DNA of 64,000 nt from Chloroflexota bacterium. GTDB taxonomy: Bacteria; Chloroflexota; Dehalococcoidia; JACVQG01; JAHKAY01. Position numbers and translations under genes: made by a program. The notes under the pieces are model-generated. The model was given only the letters and a program-made list of their open reading frames with translations. It was not told the DNA's origin and ran no database searches. Shown piece after piece: positions 18,080-28,379 of this stretch; positions within the stretch are counted from its first letter, which is position 1; each line of letters begins with the position of its first letter. The DNA is taken from assembly GCA_018825785.1 (NCBI GenBank), contig JAHKAY010000038.1, positions 1 to 64,000 of the forward strand, given 5' to 3'.

Positions 18080-19906
18080 ATGGCTCATAGGAGGCGATTG
18101 CCTATAGCCATTCTGGTTATGGCTCCTCTGCTGCTGTCCATATCGTATCATGTGGTGCAGGCTGACCAGACAGAGTATTCCTACGATGCCATCATCGTTG
18201 ACATCGATATTCTACCCAATTCAGAAATGGAGATTACGGAGACACAGCGCTTGAACTACGCGTCAGGTACCTACCATTACGCCTACCGCTGGATACCGCT
18301 GGATAGGGTCGAGAGCATAGACGATGTTCAAGTCTGGGAAGAGGGGCATCAGTATCCGGCCAACCCGGCAGTGAGGGAATGGATAGAGGAGCGAAGAGAG
18401 ACCGGCGGTGCCCCGGGTGGCGACGCCCGTGCTTTCTCTACCTGGGTTGAGAGCAATAGACTTCATGTTGGCTGGTGGTTCCCTGAAACCGTGAACATGA
18501 TTCGGACCTTCTACGTCAAGTATACGGTACGCGGTGGGCTTCGCTTTGATGAAAGGGGTGACCAGCTTTACTGGAAAGCCGTCTTTGGGGACCGGGATGT
18601 GCCGGTTGGCCAGGCCACGGTAGAGGTTCACTTCCCCGGACCATTGCCTCGTGAGCAGGTCCAACTCATCAGCTACGGAGCCCCCGCACGAAGTCGTTTT
18701 GTTGATGCAAGTAATGTCGAGTTTGCAGCGGCAAACCTGGCCCCGAAAGAGGAACTGGAAATAAGAATCCTCTTCCCTCACGGGATAGTTAGCGGCACAC
18801 CGCCTGCGTGGCAGGCCGGTGTGGAACGGCTCGAAGCTTATGACCTCGATGTCAAGCCGTGGGTGAATCTCGGCTTACTCGTGCTCGCCCTGGCAGTAAT
18901 CCCCTTTGTCGGATTTCTCTGGCTGCGGCGGAGACTAGCTACATCCGGTGCCAAGCCTGACCTCGCTACTACCCCTCATATTTTGCTTTCTCCTCCCAGC
19001 GAACTGCCACCCGCCCTTGTCGCCCTGCTTGTGTCCCGGCACACTAGCCCTGCGGCATTGCCGGCGACCATTTTTGACCTGGCCAGAAGGGGCACCATCG
19101 AGATTGAAGAGATGAAAGAGAAACACCGTTTCGGCACCAGGGAAGACCTTATCATCAGAAAGCTGAAGGACGATGAGAGGTTTTCTTTTGAGCGTCTTGT
19201 CTCCCAGGCCGTCAGCAGCCCTGAAGGAGAACGGCTATCCAGCAGAAGAAGCTCCCTATCTTCCCTGCCCAAGGACTTCAACAGGAGCGCCGAAGAGGAA
19301 GCCGTCAGACAGGGATTCTTCGCCGAAGAGCCTTCCAGGTCAATGAAGCGCCTGTATGTCCCCGGAATAGTGCTGGTCTCTGGCGCTGTGGTGATAGGGC
19401 TGGCGGTGAGCCTGCTCGCATACCGGTTCGCTGAGTTCATCTTTGCGCCCTTTCTTGCGCTGTCTGTCCTGGGTCTTGTGGCTATATGTCTGGCTCCAAG
19501 ATTGCCCCAGATGACCGAGCATGGAGCCAGGGAAGCCGCCCCCTGGACAGCTTTCCGCAAATACCTCCAGAATGTGGCCAAAGACCGAAAACTGGCGGCA
19601 ACAACCATCGCTGTCTGGGATAGCTATCTCCCGTATGCGGTATTGTTTGGACTGGGTCATCGGTGGGTGAAGCAATTCAGCGAACTCGATGCTTCAGCCC
19701 CCACCTGGTTCTATGCGTGGTCACCCTCCGGGCAGCAGATTTCAGCGGCATCCGGTCATCCCTCCCTTGGTTCTATAGCTGACGCGTTCAGCAGCATGAC
19801 CAGCACCATCCATAGCACTTTCACCGGCGGCGGTTCAGGTGCGGGTGGAGGCGGCGGCGGTGGTGGAGGCGGGGGAGGTGGGGGCGGGGGGGGCGGTTCA
19901 GGCTAG
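18080..19906 (+). CDS. DUF2207 membrane protein with polyglycine tail
   Basis: This 608-residue protein has a signal peptide (about 1-28), an extracytoplasmic beta-rich DUF2207 domain with AYRWIPLDRVESIDDVQV, a membrane segment at about 262-283, and a cytoplasmic part with a helical domain. A second membrane pair lies at about 428-470, and the tail is almost only glycine (last 27 residues, G with a few A and S). This layout, including the Gly-rich end, is normal for the DUF2207 family, which has no established function. The ATG at 18080 starts the signal peptide. The glycosyltransferase gene begins 15 bp after its stop. Confidence 0.82.
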   Translation: MAHRRRLPIAILVMAPLLLSISYHVVQADQTEYSYDAIIVDIDILPNSEMEITETQRLNYASGTYHYAYRWIPLDRVESIDDVQVWEEGHQYPANPAVREWIEERRETGGAPGGDARAFSTWVESNRLHVGWWFPETVNMIRTFYVKYTVRGGLRFDERGDQLYWKAVFGDRDVPVGQATVEVHFPGPLPREQVQLISYGAPARSRFVDASNVEFAAANLAPKEELEIRILFPHGIVSGTPPAWQAGVERLEAYDLDVKPWVNLGLLVLALAVIPFVGFLWLRRRLATSGAKPDLATTPHILLSPPSELPPALVALLVSRHTSPAALPATIFDLARRGTIEIEEMKEKHRFGTREDLIIRKLKDDERFSFERLVSQAVSSPEGERLSSRRSSLSSLPKDFNRSAEEEAVRQGFFAEEPSRSMKRLYVPGIVLVSGAVVIGLAVSLLAYRFAEFIFAPFLALSVLGLVAICLAPRLPQMTEHGAREAAPWTAFRKYLQNVAKDRKLAATTIAVWDSYLPYAVLFGLGHRWVKQFSELDASAPTWFYAWSPSGQQISAASGHPSLGSIADAFSSMTSTIHSTFTGGGSGAGGGGGGGGGGGGGGGGGGSG

Positions 19907-21467: not shown

Positions 21468-21498
21468 TTGGCTCCAAATTGCGTGGAGACGGTATAAT
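21468..21498 (+). promoter_or_regulatory. Promoter of mutS2
   Basis: TTGGCT (21468-21473), a 19-bp spacer and a perfect TATAAT (21493-21498), 37 bp upstream of the mutS2 ATG. Confidence 0.55.
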
Positions 21499-21535
21499 GT
21501 ATTGGATATACTCGCGCAAATGAAGCAGGTTTGCC

Positions 21536-23923
21536 ATGGATGACAAGAGTCTGGAGATTCTCGAGTTCGACCGCGTAAGGGAGATACTCGCTGGCTTCAC
21601 TTCATTCCCGGCCAGCCGCGAACTTACCATGGCTATTCACCCGCTTTCTGATTGTGAGGGGATTTCCTTGCTGCTCAGGCAGTCGGCGGAAGCACGTCAG
21701 CTTCTTTCACTGAAGCCGGACTTTTATCTCGGTGAGGTGGGCGACATTCGCCAGGCGGTGACAATGGCGGCTCGGGGCAAGGTTCTCCAACCACAGACCA
21801 TCCTAGAAATTCGAAAAGCCCTGGCTGCTGTCCGTCAGGTTCGCAGCGACCTGGAAGAATTATCAAAGAAAGTGCCCCTGCTCTGGGGCATCGCCAGTGG
21901 CATCGTTCCGCTGCCTCATCTCGAGAAGGCTATCGCCAGGTGCCTGCAGCCAAGTGGCGAAGTGCTTGATAGCGCCTCTCGCAAGCTGGCCACCGTCAGG
22001 CAGCGATTGGTGCAAGTGCGCAAGCAGGTCTTGGGACGTCTCGAAGCCATCATGAAGACGCCTCAGGGAATCAAGATAGTCCAGGTACCTATGGTCACGG
22101 AGCGAGAGGGAAGATATGTCATTCCCATCAAAATGGAGTTTCGAAAGGCACTGAAGGGCATCGTTCATGATGTTTCCAACACAGGAGCTACAGCATTCGT
22201 TGAACCATGGGGGATTATGGAGCTGGGTAATGAGCTTAGAGAGCTCGTTACGGAAGAAAGGGATGAGATAGAGAGGATTCTTGCTGACCTGAGCGCTGAG
22301 GTTGGTGACAACGAAGCGCAAATTCTTCGGAATGTGGCCCTTGTTGCTGAGCTTGACGTGTCTCTGGCCAAAGCAAGGTATGCCAGGAAGTCGCAGGCCA
22401 CAGAGCCCAAGCTGACCGTCTTTGAGGAAGGCGGAAAGGGTTGCGTGCTCAAGCTTGTTGAGGCCAGACACCCATTGCTCCCAGAGAAAGCGGTGCCACT
22501 TACTATAGAGATTGGACGGGACTTCTCCTGCCTTGTAATCACCGGCCCCAATACGGGTGGTAAGACGGTGGCGCTGAAGACAATCGGCCTGCTCAGCCTC
22601 ATGGCGCAGTCCGGCATACCGATACCGGCGTCGGGCGAAAGTAGCCTTCCGGTCTTTGATGGTGTATTCGCCGACATAGGCGACGAGCAAAGCATCGAGC
22701 AGACACTTTCCACCTTCGGCTGGCACATGGGCAATGTCGTAAGAATCGTCACGAGTGCTACGGAAAAGAGCCTTGTACTTCTTGACGAATTGGGTACCAG
22801 CACTGACCCGGCTGAAGGGGGTGCCCTGGCCCGCTCGATTTTGCTCCATTTTCTGGCGCGGAGAACGATGACCGTGGCTACCACGCACTACGGGGAGTTG
22901 AAGGTGTTTGCGCATGTGACTCCGGGGACGCAAAATGCTTCCTTTGACTTTGACCCAGCTACGCTGAAGCCCACATTTCATCTGACAGTGGGTGTTCCGG
23001 GCGGCAGCAATGCGCTGGCCACCGCTTCACGCCTGGGTCTACCCCCCGAAATCGTAAGCGTCGCCAGAGAGATGCTGCCCAAGGGTACCCAGGAGTTGGA
23101 GGCCCTGCTAGCTGATTTGGCCAGTGAAAAGCGAGGAGTTGAAGCCCTGCGTCATGACTTGGAGACGGAGAAAGCAGATGTAGAACGGCGGAAGATTGAA
23201 CTGGCGAATGAACTTCAACAGTCTAGAGCTGAGGAACGGCAAGTCATTGAAGAGGTCCGCGACAGGGTACTCCGCGAGGCTGCTGAGCTGCAAAAGGAAA
23301 TACGTCAGGCTGAATCAGAGCTACGCAAAGAGAAGGCCAGAGAAGGAATCGAGCGGGCCAGAAAGGCGCTGGCCGCCATGCGCGAGCAGATGAAAAGCCA
23401 GGTTTGGCAGCCCCGGGCGGACAAGGCGACGGATGAACATGTGGCAGACAAGGACGCCATCACCGTAGGCGATAGCGTCTTGCTTAAAGAAACCGGCTTG
23501 CAGGCAACTGTACTATCAGTATCGGACAAGACGCAGCAGGTCGAGGTGCAGGCCGGGCAGACGAGGCTCAAGCTAAGTCTTGGTAGCCTGGAGAAGGTCG
23601 GCCCTTCTTCTGCGGGGGCAACGCCGGTATTCACCCCGGCAACAAAGGTGTCGAGAAGACAGCCGGTTTCACTCGAACTGGACCTTCGGGGCAAGCGTGC
23701 GGATGAAGTAGAGCTGCTGCTCGATAACTATCTCAACAACGCCTTCCTGGCCAATTTGAGCAAGGTACGTATTGTTCATGGTGTCGGCACCGGCGCAGTA
23801 CGTAAGACTGCCAGAGATTGTTTGGCTTCTCACCCCTTGGTCGAGTCCTCCCGCCCTGCCGAGCGGAGAGAAGGTGGTGAGGGAGCAACCAACGTTATCC
23901 TCAAGGCGTCAGGTACCCAATGA
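21536..23923 (+). CDS. mutS2: MutS2 ATPase with C-terminal Smr nuclease domain
   Basis: This 795-residue MutS2 lacks the mismatch-recognition domains. It has the core lever region (about 1-310), the ATPase with Walker A TGPNTGGKT (about 338), Walker B LVLLDELGTSTDPAEG and a signature near ATTHYGELK. A long coiled coil (about 520-620) and a KOW-like segment lead to an Smr domain (about 715-795) with LDLRGKRADE and HGVGTGAVRKT. Smr carries the usual HGxGTG core. In Bacillus subtilis MutS2 (RqcU) binds collided ribosomes and splits them; an older view is suppression of recombination. Its stop overlaps the next start (ATGA), which encodes a release-factor-like protein, supporting the ribosome role here. 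Confidence 0.93.
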   Translation: MDDKSLEILEFDRVREILAGFTSFPASRELTMAIHPLSDCEGISLLLRQSAEARQLLSLKPDFYLGEVGDIRQAVTMAARGKVLQPQTILEIRKALAAVRQVRSDLEELSKKVPLLWGIASGIVPLPHLEKAIARCLQPSGEVLDSASRKLATVRQRLVQVRKQVLGRLEAIMKTPQGIKIVQVPMVTEREGRYVIPIKMEFRKALKGIVHDVSNTGATAFVEPWGIMELGNELRELVTEERDEIERILADLSAEVGDNEAQILRNVALVAELDVSLAKARYARKSQATEPKLTVFEEGGKGCVLKLVEARHPLLPEKAVPLTIEIGRDFSCLVITGPNTGGKTVALKTIGLLSLMAQSGIPIPASGESSLPVFDGVFADIGDEQSIEQTLSTFGWHMGNVVRIVTSATEKSLVLLDELGTSTDPAEGGALARSILLHFLARRTMTVATTHYGELKVFAHVTPGTQNASFDFDPATLKPTFHLTVGVPGGSNALATASRLGLPPEIVSVAREMLPKGTQELEALLADLASEKRGVEALRHDLETEKADVERRKIELANELQQSRAEERQVIEEVRDRVLREAAELQKEIRQAESELRKEKAREGIERARKALAAMREQMKSQVWQPRADKATDEHVADKDAITVGDSVLLKETGLQATVLSVSDKTQQVEVQAGQTRLKLSLGSLEKVGPSSAGATPVFTPATKVSRRQPVSLELDLRGKRADEVELLLDNYLNNAFLANLSKVRIVHGVGTGAVRKTARDCLASHPLVESSRPAERREGGEGATNVILKASGTQ

Positions 23924-24702
23924 GTGAGAACAGCGTTATCCAGATGATGGCGGCAAGGCGTTTTCGTCTTGGCAAGCAGAGAATGCTTGACTTTCTTGAT
24001 GAGCTGAGAGAGGCCAGTGGTGAAGGTGTCTCACTGTATCTGCCGCCCGGCTTAGAACCTGGTGAAGTGAACAAGTCTCTTGGAGAAACGCTTGGCTTGC
24101 AGGGTATACCTCCAGAGCTGAGTGAGTTTGCCGTTGCTTCGAAACAGGGAGTTATCATTTTCTGGGGACCGTCGCGAAAGTGCCTTGTTACGCCGCCATT
24201 CCCAGTCGAGGAGAAGGGCTTCTATCAGAACTACGATATTGAGGGGCTGCGTTCCATGCTGACGCACGACTACAAGGTTGCCCTCATTCTAATACGTCTT
24301 GGCGCATATGCTATCGGTGTCTATCAGGGTCAAAAGCTAGTCGGAAGCAAGGTGGGAACCGGTCTTGTCCATGCAAGGCACAAGCAGGGTGGTTCTTCGC
24401 AGGCCCGTTTCGCCCGGCACCGGGAAAAGCAGATAGAGTATTTTTTGAATCGCGTCTGCGGCCATGTGCGGGACCAGATTGAGCCTCACCTTCAGACACT
24501 GGACTGGGTTACCTATGGAGGCGCCAGAACCACAATACTCTTGCTTCGTAAACAGTGCCATTTCCTGGGACAGTTTGACGGCCGTACTTTGCCGCCCCTG
24601 CTGGATATACCTGAACCGCGCAAGGCTGTGCTAGAAACGGCAATAGACCGAGTCTGGGCAAGTAGCCTCATGGAATGGCGTGACAATGAAATCTTGACCT
24701 AG
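23920..24702 (+). CDS. Vms1/ANKZF1-like (VLRF1) peptidyl-tRNA release factor homologue
   Basis: This 260-residue protein looks like the bacterial branch of the VLRF1/eRF1-like family. The clearest sign is the loop HKQGGSSQARFARHREKQ (Gln161), which lines up with the GGSQ catalytic loop of eukaryotic Vms1. Vms1 cuts nascent chains from peptidyl-tRNA on split 60S subunits. The surrounding strands (VALILIRLGAYAIGVYQGQK, TILLLRKQCHF) fit an eRF1 domain-2-like fold. No zinc finger or ankyrin repeats are present. Its ATG overlaps the mutS2 stop by 4 nt, so the two are translationally coupled. MutS2 would split stalled ribosomes and this protein would then free the peptide. The family call is by motif and is not database-tested. 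Confidence 0.72.
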   Translation: MSENSVIQMMAARRFRLGKQRMLDFLDELREASGEGVSLYLPPGLEPGEVNKSLGETLGLQGIPPELSEFAVASKQGVIIFWGPSRKCLVTPPFPVEEKGFYQNYDIEGLRSMLTHDYKVALILIRLGAYAIGVYQGQKLVGSKVGTGLVHARHKQGGSSQARFARHREKQIEYFLNRVCGHVRDQIEPHLQTLDWVTYGGARTTILLLRKQCHFLGQFDGRTLPPLLDIPEPRKAVLETAIDRVWASSLMEWRDNEILT

Positions 24703-24802
24703 CAGGGTGATGAAAAAGTCCCGTAGAACGAGACCTTAGCTTTGGATCTGTCGGATATTTCGTATCTGCGTTTGGTTGGGCACCCCCTTTTTCGGCACCC
24801 TG
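24703..24802. mobile_element. 100-bp MITE-like element with IS5-type inverted ends
   Basis: The left end CAGGGTGATGAAAAAG and the inverted right end CAGGGTGCCGAAAAAG match at 14 of 16 positions. The left 20 bp match the IS end at 135-154 at 16 of 20. No gene is inside. The flanks are CTAG (24699-24702) and TTAG (24803-24806), consistent with a YTAR target duplication. The stop codon of the VLRF1 gene lies in the left copy. A 12-bp perfect palindrome TTAGGGCCCTAA (24803-24814) abuts the right end. Confidence 0.65.
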
Positions 24803-24814
24803 TTAGGGCCCTAA

Positions 24815-25230
24815 TAACGGCATGTGTGAACGCTTGTGAACGCTAGGGGCTAGGCTGGCAGGAGGGCGAGCTGGCGGGCGGGAGCTGGAGGCGGGGCAGG
24901 CAGGACCAGGGCAACTCGGAGCTTCTTGGCCCTGGCGTGGGCCTGGCCGTGGTGGTGGGCGCACAGCGCCATCAGGTTCTCGGGCCGGTTGAGCTTGGAG
25001 CAGGCCCGGGGCTGGCCGTTCAGGGGCGCTTACGCTGGTCCTCACCGTGCCTGAGGCCGAGCTCGTACTGAACTCTTTTGCCCGCGCGATAAGGGAAGCG
25101 AAACAGGGGTCTCGACCACCGTCTGTGCAGTCCTCAACCAGGCCAAAGAAGCTAGGGCATCGTCAGTCACCAGAACGTTCATAGGACCTGCTAGTCAGAA
25201 GATGTCACGCAGGAGTCCTGAAACAGATAG
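24815..25230. other. Gene-poor junction with decayed coding pieces
   Basis: Apart from the HNH relic (24850-25029), I find no intact gene. A minus-strand frame starting MNVLVTDDALASLAWL (ATG near 25182) runs 47 codons, and a neighbouring frame reads YRAGKRVQYEL, vaguely like the start of a Holliday-junction-resolvase-type nuclease. Neither is convincing. Base composition changes across this stretch from moderate to high GC. Confidence 0.4.
24850..25029 (-). pseudogene. C-terminal relic of an HNH endonuclease
   Basis: On the minus strand the open stretch after an in-frame stop (25032-25030) includes LNRPENLMALCAHHHGQAH and ends in a Pro/Ala-rich tail at a TAG (24852-24850). The N-(L)-x-x-L-C-x-x-H-H-x-x-x-H pattern is the end of an HNH nuclease core. 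The N-terminal CxxC and DH parts are absent or out of frame, so this is a phage- or mobile-element-derived remnant. Confidence 0.45.
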
Positions 25231-25304
25231 CGCGGCTGGTGAGATTCGAACTCACGACCACTGGTTCCGAAGACCAGTGCTCTGGTCCGCTGAGCTACAG
25301 CCGC
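25231..25304 (-). tRNA. tRNA-Arg (anticodon TCG)
   Basis: The complete cloverleaf has a 7-bp acceptor stem GCGGCTG/CAGCCGC (25304-25298 with 25238-25232), a D-arm with GCTC/GAGC, anticodon stem CTGGT/ACCAG around the loop CTTCGGA, a 5-base variable loop, and T-arm GTGAG-TTCGAAT-CTCAC. Discriminator G is at 25231. The 3' CCA is not encoded. It lies 3 bp after tRNA-His on the same strand. Confidence 0.93.
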
Positions 25305-25307
25305 TGG

Positions 25308-25381
25308 GGTGAGCGGAGGGATTCGAACCCTCGATCTCCAGGGCCACAACCTGGCGCCTTGAACCGCTCGGCTACGCTCAC
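25308..25381 (-). tRNA. tRNA-His (anticodon GTG)
   Basis: Acceptor stem GTGAGCG/CGCTCAC, anticodon stem CCAGG/CCTGG with loop TTGTGGC, T-arm GAGGG-TTCGAAT-CCCTC, and the histidine-specific C73 discriminator at 25308. The base before position 1 (25382) is G on the minus strand, as needed for G-1. CCA is not encoded. Confidence 0.93.
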
Positions 25382-25403
25382 CACAAAGACCATTCTATCC
25401 CCT

Positions 25404-26325
25404 CTAGATGCCTTCTTGCAAGCTGGGAAGATCCTGAAAGAGCCGGACAAGCCCCGGGTCAAACTGTTTTCCCGATTCCTGGGCGATAATGCGGCGGGCC
25501 CTCTCCGGGGTGAAGGCGGGGCGGTAGGGCCGGGGGGAGGCGAGGGCGGAAAAGGCATCGGCCAGGGCCATTATCCGGGCAAGAAGGGGTATCTCCTCTC
25601 CCTTCAACCCGTCGGGGTAGCCCCCGCCGTCCCAGCGCTCGTGGTGATAGCGGACCGCCTCCCCCACCCCCTTCCCCAGGGGCCGGGCAATGCGCCATCC
25701 CAGCGCCGGGTGGGCCTTCACCTCCCGCCACTCCTCGGGGGAAAGGCTCCCCCCCCTTCAAGAGGATGGCCCGGTCCAGGCCTACCTTGCCTGCATCATG
25801 GAGGATGGCCCCCAGCCGCAGCTCACGGAGGTCTTCGGCAGAGAGGCCGGACCTCTCCCCCAGGGCCAGGGCGGCGGCCATGGCTTTTCTGGTGTGGCCC
25901 CGGGCATAGGGGTCCTGGGCCTCCACCGCCTCGGCCAGGGCCAGCAGCACCTTCTCCCCCTCCACCAGCCCCTCATAGAGCCGCCTGAGCCGGACAAGGG
26001 CCCTGGCCCGGGAGGCCAGCTCCCGCCGGCGGAGGGGGCGGAGGAGGACCTCATCGGCCCCCACCTCCCATCCCCGGAGCCTCCCCTCCTCCCCTTCAGC
26101 CACCATCAGCACCGGCACCAGCCCATCCCGCTCCTTTATCCCGGAGCATAGGGAAAAGGGGTCAGTCCCGGAAAGGCAGGAGCCCAGCACCACCAGGTCG
26201 GGCGGGTGTCCTTGCTCCCCGGCTTCGGCCTGGACCTGGACATCAAAGCCCTCCACGGAGAGGACGGCTTCCAGTAGGCGGCGGCGGGCGGGGGATGCCT
26301 CCACCACCAGGGCCCTGGGCTTCAC
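25404..26325 (-). pseudogene. HD-GYP phosphodiesterase with degenerate receiver, frameshifted at a G8 run
   Basis: The gene would encode about 306 residues: a receiver-like domain (1-115) and an HD-GYP domain that hydrolyses cyclic di-GMP or a related dinucleotide. The receiver is degenerate: acidic pair lost (VVEAS), PDLVVLG with Gly for the phospho-Asp, and Arg for the Lys. HD-GYP motifs are GHTRKAMA, LHDAGKVG and RYHHERWDGGGYPDGL. The frame breaks after AILLKGG at a run of eight G (8 C at 25749-25756, plus strand). Removing one G restores SLSPEEWREVKAHPALG and joins the second half. This is a real frameshift, a slippage site or a base-call error. A GTG start at 26325 overlaps the stop of the upstream GH57 gene (GTGA). 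Confidence 0.75.
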
Positions 26326-28379
26326 CTCTCCTGTGTCCTGGCCTGCCAGCGGAGGAGCACCCCCCACCCCCGGCCGGGCCTGAGCTCTACGGGATATAAG
26401 ACAGCCAGGCAGGTCCCCTGATAGACCCTCTCCACGCCCTGCTCCGAGTTGGAGAAGGCCTCCACGGGAAAAAGCCAGAGCCGGGCGGGCTGAGACAGAG
26501 CCAGCTTCAGCTCCACCCCCAGGTGGCGGTTCCCCAGGACAATCGCTTCTGCCTTAAGCTCTGCCCTGCTGTCCAGGAGGCCGGCAGCCTCCCCTGCCCG
26601 GAAGTAGGCCTGGGGGTTATGCCCCCCACCCAGGAGGTTCAGGTTCCACTCGGAGAGGAAGACGCCCCTCCAGGAAGAGCCCCCCCGGTATTCCAGCCGG
26701 TATTCCACCTCAAAACCCTCGTCCAGCACCCTGAAGGCCTTTTCCAAAAGGAGGGGCTGGCCCCCCACCCTGCCCTCCCGCCTCAGGACAAGGCACCGAC
26801 CCGCAACATCGGTCTCAAAGGCACCCCCGGCGAAGTCCCCGGCATCGGCATATTCCCCGTGGCCGAAATCCTCCAGGCCCACCCCTTCCTCCAGGAAATG
26901 CTCCAGGGCGGAGGTCCGGGGAAAGGGGTCATAGCTGGGAGTGAGCACTTCCTTCTCTTTGATGCGGACGAGGTCGTGGATGCTCTTCAGTCCCCCCTCC
27001 TCCCCCCCCCGCTCCAGGAGGGCCCGGTGGTAGGCCTCCGGGCGGCGGGCCAGGGTGGACAGCAGGTTAGAGGCAGGGAGGTAGAGGTCCCACTCCCCCA
27101 GGGCCCCCCCCTCCCCCGGCCTGAAGAAGAGGCCCTGGTCTCTGCCCTCGTAGACCACCTCCTCCCTGCCATCCAGGTCCACATCCTCCCTCTCCCAGCC
27201 TGAAGGCCCCAGGACGCCCCAGGCCTGTCTCTCGGCCCGGAGGAGGTGATGGTAGGCTACTGCTCTGAGGTCGGCCAGGTAGAGGCCGCCGAAGATGCCG
27301 TGCCAGTAGGCGCAACAGGACTGGGCCCGCCACAGGTCATCCCGTCCGTCCACCCCCTTCTCCAGGGCGCGGTAGACCAGGCGGTGAGTCCGGAGCATCC
27401 TCTTGTGGAGCCAGTTGGCCTCGGGATATTTCACCAGGAAGTGCCTCCAGAAGCCGCCATGCAGGAAGTCCAGCACCTCCGGCCGGGCCTGGAACTCCCG
27501 CTTCAGGGCCTCCAGGGCCTCGGTCTTCTGGGTGGGAAGGGCCCACTCCAGCATCTCATCGTAGGAGGCACAGGGTAGGTAGATATTTCCCAGGGGAGCA
27601 AAGCTGGTGGCATATTCCCCCAGGGGGATTGGGGTAAGCCAGGAGGCGCTCCCCTCTATGGCGGAGAGGAACTCCTCCACCCAGCCCTCCTCCCAGCAGC
27701 GTTCATAGGTCCCCGGCCAGACCCCGAACTTCTCCCCATCATCCGCCATGACCACGATATGCCCCGGCCCCCCTTCGGCCAGGGAGCGGAGGTAGTCCAT
27801 GACCTGAGGCACCGTCTTAAAGGGTATGGAGTAGCGCAGGGCCTTGAGGGAGGAGAAGACCTTGAGTGGGTGCCCCTCTTCCTCGGTGAGGCGGTAGCCG
27901 AGGAGGTCCCCTCCCTCCAGTCCCACCATCTTGAAATGGATATCGTCCACCACTGTCCACTCCGCCCCTGCCTGGTGGAGGGGGCGGGGGAGGGAGGGCT
28001 CCCACACCCTTTCCGTCAGCCACAGACCGGTGGGACGGACGCTGAAGAACCCCTCCAGAGCCCGGGAGAGCTTCTCTATCTGTCCCACCTTGTCCCGGTC
28101 GGGGATGGCGGGCAGGATGGGCTCAAAATAGCCCCCCGACATCGCCTCCACCTGTCCCCGCCGGACCAGGGCCCCCAGGCGCCGGAGGTACTCCGGCCGT
28201 TGCTCCTGGAACCAGTCTATCAGAGGTCCCGAGTTGTGCAGGGAAAGCCTTATCAGGGGGTGCCTCTCCAGGGCCTCCAGCATAGGCAGGTAGGCCTTCT
28301 GGTAGGCCTCCTCTATCACCCAGGGGAAGTTCCCCACCGGCTGGTGGTTGTGGATGGCCAAGCCCAGGTAGAACGTCAA
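26322..28379 (-). CDS. GH57 4-alpha-glucanotransferase/alpha-amylase with C-terminal DUF1925/1926 domains
   Basis: This 685-residue enzyme of glycoside hydrolase family 57 cleaves and transfers alpha-1,4-glucan chains in the cytoplasm. The catalytic nucleophile is Glu123 in LWLTERVWEP and the acid/base Asp214 in MADDGEKFGVW, the same numbers as in the Thermococcus litoralis 4-alpha-glucanotransferase. The N-terminus LAIHNHQPVGNF is the family's first conserved region. The C-terminal half carries the beta-sandwich domains typical of that group. It has no signal peptide. It overlaps the next upstream gene (28376) by 4 nt and the downstream HD-GYP gene, forming an operon with a ROK kinase and a second GH57 enzyme. 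Likely role: breakdown or remodelling of glycogen made by the glgC-GH57-glgA genes at 34.8-39.1 kb. Confidence 0.9.
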   Translation of the reverse strand: MTFYLGLAIHNHQPVGNFPWVIEEAYQKAYLPMLEALERHPLIRLSLHNSGPLIDWFQEQRPEYLRRLGALVRRGQVEAMSGGYFEPILPAIPDRDKVGQIEKLSRALEGFFSVRPTGLWLTERVWEPSLPRPLHQAGAEWTVVDDIHFKMVGLEGGDLLGYRLTEEEGHPLKVFSSLKALRYSIPFKTVPQVMDYLRSLAEGGPGHIVVMADDGEKFGVWPGTYERCWEEGWVEEFLSAIEGSASWLTPIPLGEYATSFAPLGNIYLPCASYDEMLEWALPTQKTEALEALKREFQARPEVLDFLHGGFWRHFLVKYPEANWLHKRMLRTHRLVYRALEKGVDGRDDLWRAQSCCAYWHGIFGGLYLADLRAVAYHHLLRAERQAWGVLGPSGWEREDVDLDGREEVVYEGRDQGLFFRPGEGGALGEWDLYLPASNLLSTLARRPEAYHRALLERGGEEGGLKSIHDLVRIKEKEVLTPSYDPFPRTSALEHFLEEGVGLEDFGHGEYADAGDFAGGAFETDVAGRCLVLRREGRVGGQPLLLEKAFRVLDEGFEVEYRLEYRGGSSWRGVFLSEWNLNLLGGGHNPQAYFRAGEAAGLLDSRAELKAEAIVLGNRHLGVELKLALSQPARLWLFPVEAFSNSEQGVERVYQGTCLAVLYPVELRPGRGWGVLLRWQARTQER

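What the first reader, a model, noticed from the sequence alone, without database searches (positions are those of the whole stretch)
21536..24702. MutS2 and a Vms1-like release factor as an overlapping gene pair
Seen: ATGA overlap between mutS2 (with Smr) and a gene with the KQGGSSQ loop. Known: MutS2/RqcU splits collided ribosomes in B. subtilis, and eukaryotic Vms1 releases nascent chains from split large subunits. Inference: this pair is a two-step bacterial ribosome rescue module, an alternative to or partner of RqcH tailing.
Basis: partly seen in the sequence, partly recalled or inferred. Interest (0 to 1): 0.76.

Follow-up and report, generated by a model that had tools for sequence, protein, structure and literature searches.

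The report
MutS2–acVLRF1 ribosome-rescue gene pair
In a group of environmental Chloroflexota bacteria that lack RqcH, the usual factor that tags chains stuck on a split ribosome, the gene for the ribosome-splitting protein MutS2 is followed by one for a protein built like peptide-release factors, so the two may form a split-and-release rescue system; this is untested.

Summary
mutS2 (21536-23923) and a 260-aa acVLRF1 gene (23920-24702) overlap by ATGA. The pair is conserved: mutS2 lies directly upstream, same strand, in 37 of 52 named Chloroflexota loci and in 22 of 44 scorable genomes of the class (13 families). Linked copies form one clade of 57 plus one outlier, and no other gene is a conserved neighbour. 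RqcH is above cut-off in 0 of 177 class genomes, including this one, and in 0 of 43 further acVLRF1-bearing genomes. This genome has tmRNA and SmpB but no ArfB. A confident AlphaFold model matches eRF1/aRF1 and, more weakly, Vms1 on the 60S subunit.

Gln161 is not conserved: linked copies have Q 27, A 15, S 5, E 1, and the state changes 14 times on the tree of all 101 sequences. By contrast GG157-158, S160 and RF163-164 are invariant. The canonical GGQ glutamine aligns with Ser159.

Best reading: MutS2 splits stalled ribosomes and acVLRF1 frees the chain from the 50S subunit in place of RqcH tailing, through a loop whose essential part is GG rather than Gln (confidence 0.5). The main rival is a non-catalytic binder. 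The acVLRF1 family was already described. I found no report of the MutS2 link.

The parts
21536..23923 (+). mutS2 (RqcU-type MutS2, 795 aa)
22544..22567 (+). Walker A GPNTGGKT of the MutS2 ATPase (conserved wherever the segment is present)
23465..23587 (+). MSSS (SH3/KOW-like) domain of MutS2
23678..23905 (+). Smr domain, LDLRG form as in B. subtilis MutS2
23920..23923 (+). ATGA stop/start overlap
23920..24702 (+). acVLRF1 gene (260 aa), Vms1-like/eRF1-like factor
23947..24243 (+). N-terminal part (about residues 10-108), aligns with the eRF1/aRF1 N-terminal region in shortened form
24274..24666 (+). VLRF1 / eRF1 domain-2 catalytic-type domain
24382..24411 (+). PTC loop KQGGSSQARF; GG (24388-24393), S160 and RF invariant, Gln161 (24400-24402) variable among relatives

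Best explanation
The two genes encode a split-and-release ribosome rescue pair. MutS2 binds stalled or collided ribosomes and uses its ATPase to split them, leaving peptidyl-tRNA on the 50S subunit. acVLRF1 then enters the vacated A site of the 50S subunit, puts its GG loop into the peptidyl-transferase centre and frees the nascent chain, by hydrolysing the peptidyl-tRNA bond or cleaving the tRNA 3' end, without Ala-tailing by RqcH. Shown here: the gene pair and its conservation, the domain make-up, the fold, the invariant GG loop, and the lack of RqcH and ArfB. Inferred: both biochemical steps, their order, and that the two proteins work together.
For: mutS2 is the only conserved neighbour of these acVLRF1 genes (37/52 loci, always upstream on the same strand). 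Linkage: 22/44 scorable class genomes in 13 families; one clade of 57, SH-aLRT 99, plus one outlier. The pair stays in order even where a putative IS200-like transposase gene or a PIN/MazE-type toxin-antitoxin pair lies between the two. Pairwise distances of the two proteins match (r = 0.955, 41 loci). MutS2 aligns over its full length with ribosome-bound B. subtilis MutS2, and Walker A/B are conserved wherever present. acVLRF1 model: pLDDT 93; Foldseek matches aRF1/eRF1 (E 3e-12) and Vms1-60S (E 1.5e-5). GG157-158, S160 and R163 are invariant in all 93 scored sequences. In GGQ factors any glycine mutation abolishes release, the Gln side chain has a packing role (PMC5799190) and the Gln backbone amide is catalytic (PMC5378476). 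RqcH over cut-off: 0/177 class genomes and 0/43 acVLRF1 genomes, though 97% of RqcH genomes carry MutS2 and 87% of RqcH-less genomes lack it (PMC11633108). No ArfB in this genome; tmRNA and SmpB present. Bacteria have no known dedicated RQC termination factor (PMC11317155).
Against: Gln161 is only 56% conserved among linked copies and the canonical GGQ glutamine position is Ser, so 21/48 linked copies have no glutamine at either position. About two thirds of class genomes with a detected MutS2 have no acVLRF1 (70 of 108), so MutS2 does not need it, and half of the acVLRF1 genes are not linked. Actinobacteria carry acVLRF1 but have neither mutS2 nor rqcH (PMC11633108). Most class genomes lack both the pair and RqcH, so RqcH loss does not by itself require the pair. 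Shared phylogeny confounds the RqcH exclusion. Pth can release Ala-tailed chains in B. subtilis.
Confidence: 0.5

Rival explanations
1. acVLRF1 is a non-catalytic A-site/50S binder, like Dom34/Pelota. It marks or props open stalled ribosomes so that MutS2 can split them, or shields the split 50S subunit. Another enzyme (Pth) frees the chain.
For: The position-161 glutamine is lost or regained repeatedly (14 changes of state) while the mutS2 linkage persists, so the linked function does not depend on it. Foldseek also finds Pelota/Dom34. Loop-flanking arginines R153, R163 and R168 are invariant in linked copies, as expected for rRNA binding. In B. subtilis Pth can release RQC chains (PMC11317155).
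Against: GG, S160 and RF are invariant in linked copies, whereas the inactive relatives have a degenerate catalytic loop (Dom34: PMC6514570; Balon lacks GGQ: PMC10901736). acVLRF1 has no C-terminal Pelota/eRF1 domain 3 to recruit a GTPase.
Confidence: 0.25
2. The genes share an operon without a shared pathway. MutS2 acts mainly in DNA recombination here, or the linkage is only co-regulation, and acVLRF1 is a separate translation factor.
For: Half of the acVLRF1 genes in the class are unlinked and 70 of 108 class genomes with detected MutS2 lack acVLRF1. Matching distances would also arise from plain vertical descent.
Against: The linkage survives across 13 families, and in three genomes the two genes stay in order with an insert between them, while no other neighbour is kept. 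MutS2 has the KOW and Smr domains needed for recruitment to collided ribosomes in B. subtilis (PMC10897456).
Confidence: 0.15
3. acVLRF1 is a ribosome hibernation factor of the Balon type.
For: Foldseek matches Balon on Psychrobacter and Mycobacterium ribosomes (8rdv, 8v9j; E about 1e-7).
Against: Balon has three domains, including the EF-Tu-binding C-terminal domain, lacks GGQ, and most often sits next to raiA or stress genes (PMC10901736). This protein has two domains and an invariant GG loop and sits next to mutS2, not raiA.
Confidence: 0.07

Closest known systems
acVLRF-1 family (PF18859; NCBIfam NF041024 'acVLRF1 family peptidyl-tRNA hydrolase'; Burroughs and Aravind 2019, PMC6514570)
   Same: Same domain, short N-terminal part, GGxSQ loop; predicted active release-factor-like hydrolase of Actinobacteria and Chloroflexi.
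   Different: That paper does not mention MutS2. Here one clade is tied to mutS2 and its GGxSQ glutamine is often A, S or E. The window protein is 4 bits under NCBI's model cut-off.
Vms1/ANKZF1 (eukaryotic RQC release factor)
   Same: Foldseek match over 186-194 columns including Vms1 on the 60S subunit; proposed substrate is peptidyl-tRNA on a split large subunit; Vms1 reads GSQ at the loop (PMC6344382).
   Different: No zinc finger, ankyrin or VIM parts; no sequence-level match to Vms1; Gln not conserved in the clade; no RqcH/Rqc2 in the genome.
B. subtilis MutS2 (RqcU)
   Same: Same domains and full-length alignment; splits collided ribosomes without cutting mRNA (PMC10897456).
   Different: In B. 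subtilis it feeds RqcH Ala-tailing; here RqcH is absent and acVLRF1 is the neighbour.
aRF1/eRF1
   Same: Best sequence and fold match (3agk, 4af1).
   Different: No domain 3, shortened N-terminal part, canonical GGQ glutamine replaced by Ser.
Balon / Pelota
   Same: Same superfamily and fold.
   Different: These have three domains and lack the GG loop motif.

Membership tests
acVLRF-1 (PF18859) | Pfam model above gathering score | tested here: met
   107 bits against 27.1
acVLRF-1 (PF18859) | No stop-codon-binding domain, short N-terminal extension, no Pelota domain | tested here: met
   About 108 residues precede the VLRF1 domain and nothing follows it. The N-terminal part still aligns with the eRF1 N-terminal region in shortened form
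acVLRF-1 (PF18859) | GGxSQ motif | tested here: met
   Window GGSSQ; but only 27 of 48 mutS2-linked relatives keep Q
acVLRF-1 (PF18859) | NCBI exception-level model NF041024 | tested here: inconclusive
   121 bits, cut-off 125
acVLRF-1 (PF18859) | Peptidyl-tRNA hydrolase activity | not testable with these tools
   Needs biochemistry; no assay of any acVLRF1 was found in the papers searched
Vms1-type RQC release factor (works like) | Fold of Vms1 VLRF1 domain with its N-terminal part | tested here: met
   5whg and 6r84 matched, rmsd about 5 A over 186-192 columns
Vms1-type RQC release factor (works like) | Invariant catalytic Gln | tested here: not met
   Present in the window protein, not conserved in its clade
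MutS2/RqcU | MutS core ATPase, KOW/MSSS, C-terminal Smr; no mismatch-recognition domain | tested here: met
MutS2/RqcU | Splits collided ribosomes | not testable with these tools
   Shown for B. subtilis MutS2 only (PMC10897456)
Bacterial RQC (RqcH pathway) | RqcH present | tested here: not met
   No NFACT_N match in this genome; 0/177 class genomes over cut-off
Balon hibernation factor | Three domains with EF-Tu-binding C-terminal domain | tested here: not met
   260-aa two-part protein

The most novel reading that the evidence does not exclude
A dedicated RqcH-independent split-and-release pathway exists in bacteria: MutS2 splits, and acVLRF1 releases the chain with a GG loop that does not need a glutamine side chain. 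Nature has repeatedly swapped the Vms1-type Gln for Ala, Ser or Glu while keeping the operon.
Probability: 0.3. Interest if true: 0.82.

Novelty: new variant of a known kind. Interest (0 to 1): 0.6.

Why it matters
How the nascent chain leaves the split 50S subunit is described as the least understood step of bacterial RQC, and no dedicated termination factor is known (PMC11317155). A whole class of bacteria that lacks RqcH while many members keep MutS2 breaks the usual co-occurrence of the two, and a conserved operon offers a concrete candidate for what acts after splitting. The natural Gln, Ala, Ser and Glu variants also give a ready-made test of whether the Gln side chain or the GG backbone does the chemistry in Vms1-like factors.

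Tried and rejected
A conserved third gene was sought by clustering all ORFs of 80 loci. Besides mutS2, the frequent clusters in Chloroflexota were ORFs on the opposite strand overlapping the two genes, plus convergent DUF1015/PurL genes in 9 of 52 loci; actinobacterial clusters were ECH and unassigned ORFs, so this led nowhere. The 246-aa gene after mutS2 in G066 was tested as a diverged acVLRF1 and rejected (hhalign probability 0.1%). Weak acVLRF1 hits under about 60 bits (360-550 aa frames) were treated as other baeRF families, by length and score, and left out. Weak NFACT_N hits confined to profile positions of about 150-256 were not counted as RqcH. A sigma-70-like site at 21484-21512 is no better than chance (1 found, 1.4 expected). 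Balon and Pelota identity was considered and rejected on domain make-up.

Full report
OBSERVATION. The window is G000:C38 of a 1.59-Mb, 96.7% complete draft genome. ORFs 21536-23923 and 23920-24702 overlap by ATGA. The first is a full MutS2: MutS_V, MSSS and Smr domains, TIGR01069 at 804 bits, and an end-to-end alignment with ribosome-bound B. subtilis MutS2 8qpp. The second is acVLRF1 PF18859, 107 bits, with KQGGSSQARF at residues 155-164.

SURVEY. A scan of the GTDB species genomes gave 80 loci: 52 Chloroflexota and 28 Actinobacteria. mutS2 lies directly upstream on the same strand in 37 of 52 Chloroflexota loci and 0 of 28 actinobacterial loci. Clustering of all neighbouring ORFs shows no other neighbour conserved at that level. 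In an independent draw of 177 genomes of the class, 47 carry a strong acVLRF1 (65 bits or more). In 22 of the 44 with enough upstream sequence the gene follows mutS2; these belong to 13 families. Chance for a given gene to sit there is about 1 in 3600 per genome (assumes about 1800 genes). Gaps have median 34 nt and 27 of 37 are at most 60 nt. In two genomes a putative transposase gene lies between the two genes (Y1_Tnp-like in L063, below Pfam's cut-off; a similar ORF in L157), and in one a PIN/MazE-type toxin-antitoxin pair, yet the order is kept. Pairwise distances of the two proteins correlate at r = 0.955, consistent with long co-inheritance; vertical descent alone could also give this.

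TREE. On a tree of 101 acVLRF1 proteins, with residues 159-161 left out, the linked copies fall into one clade of 57 (SH-aLRT 99) with few apparent losses of linkage, plus one outlier, L100. Linkage changes 5 times. The Gln/non-Gln state of position 161 changes 14 times over the whole tree. The tree is a quick one with some long branches, and direction (loss or gain) cannot be told from the counts.

THE LOOP. In 48 linked copies position 161 is Q 27, A 15, S 5, E 1, and position 159 is S in 47. G157, G158, S160, R163, F164 and R168 are invariant. All actinobacterial copies sampled have Q at 161 (GGWSQ or GGQSQ). In the profile alignment to archaeal aRF1 (GGQSQRR, GGQSAQRF) the canonical GGQ glutamine aligns with window Ser159, and Gln161 aligns with Q or A. 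Burroughs and Aravind treat the Q of GGxSQ as the VLRF-1 catalytic Gln (PMC6514570), and Vms1/ANKZF1 read GSQ/TAQ (PMC6344382). This does not by itself make those copies inactive: in GGQ factors the glycines are indispensable and the Gln side chain has a packing role (PMC5799190), while the Gln backbone amide is catalytic (PMC5378476). The GG pair is invariant in all 93 scored sequences, unlike in Balon, which lacks GGQ (PMC10901736), or Dom34, whose loop is poorly conserved.

STRUCTURE. AlphaFold2 on 45 sequences gives pLDDT 93.3 and pTM 0.88, lowest at the ends and in the loop block 151-160. Foldseek against the PDB: aRF1 4af1 (E 3e-12), human eRF1, Balon (E about 1e-7), Pelota, Vms1 on 60S 6r84 (E 1.5e-5, 5.3 A over 192 columns), and the Vms1 core 5whg. 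By sequence only aRF1/eRF1 are found. The N-terminal part aligns with the eRF1 N-terminal region in shortened form, and there is no domain 3.

RESCUE FACTORS. RqcH (NFACT_N): none in this genome, none over cut-off in 177 class genomes, none over cut-off in 43 genomes holding the named acVLRF1 loci. In 251 Chloroflexota, 115 have RqcH over cut-off but 0 of the 12 strong acVLRF1 genomes do (Fisher p 6e-4; confounded by phylogeny). This genome has tmRNA and SmpB. Its two RF-1-domain proteins, in frames of 380 and 351 aa, have RF1/RF2 length, and there is no ArfB-sized one. MutS2 (MSSS match) is found in 108 of 177 class genomes and co-occurs with acVLRF1 (odds ratio 3.6, p 0.0015), though 70 genomes with MutS2 lack acVLRF1. 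Across bacteria 97% of RqcH genomes have MutS2 and 87% of RqcH-less genomes lack it (PMC11633108), so this class is an exception. Actinobacteriota have neither (0 of 3213), so in the two lineages where I found acVLRF1 it sits in RqcH-less genomes.

MECHANISM. I favour split-and-release: MutS2 makes 50S-peptidyl-tRNA, and acVLRF1 frees the chain by GG-loop chemistry or tRNA cleavage. Shown: genes, linkage, fold, loop conservation, absence of RqcH. Inferred: every biochemical step. The strongest counter-evidence is the variable Gln. The strongest rival is a non-catalytic A-site/50S binder that helps MutS2.

NOVELTY. acVLRF1 and MutS2 are each described, and NCBI already names acVLRF1 a peptidyl-tRNA hydrolase family. 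A text search of PMC for VLRF1, release factor and MutS2 gave no paper joining VLRF1 with MutS2, and acVLRF1 as a word was found in none. Subscription papers are not covered by that search.

Noticed in passing
class-wide (177 genomes): No genome of the class has RqcH over the Pfam cut-off although 108 have a detectable MutS2 MSSS domain; most of these MutS2 genomes also lack acVLRF1, so what acts after MutS2 there is unknown.
   Followed up: partly
L063 4428-4991; L157; L088 760-1426: Inserts between mutS2 and acVLRF1: an IS200-like transposase ORF (Y1_Tnp, below cut-off) in L063, a similar ORF in L157, and a PIN/MazE-type toxin-antitoxin pair in L088.
   Followed up: partly
L039 4756-5541 (second acVLRF1 of G162); also G277 and G379: A separate, unlinked acVLRF1 subfamily with a GGRSE loop; G162 holds both this and a mutS2-linked GGSSQ copy.
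   Followed up: no
L031 and L032 (G231, G045): Two Chloroflexota genomes carry actinobacterial-type acVLRF1 (GGWSQ) that falls inside the actinobacterial clade: lateral transfer or bin contamination.
   Followed up: no
24703-28000: Right after acVLRF1 the G+C rises from about 55% to 61-67% and the coding strand flips; a tRNA-Arg/tRNA-His pair sits at 25230-25381 on the minus strand, followed by response-regulator/HD and GH57 genes.
   Followed up: partly
18080-19906: DUF2207 membrane protein ending in a long poly-glycine tail.
   Followed up: no
   Followed up: no
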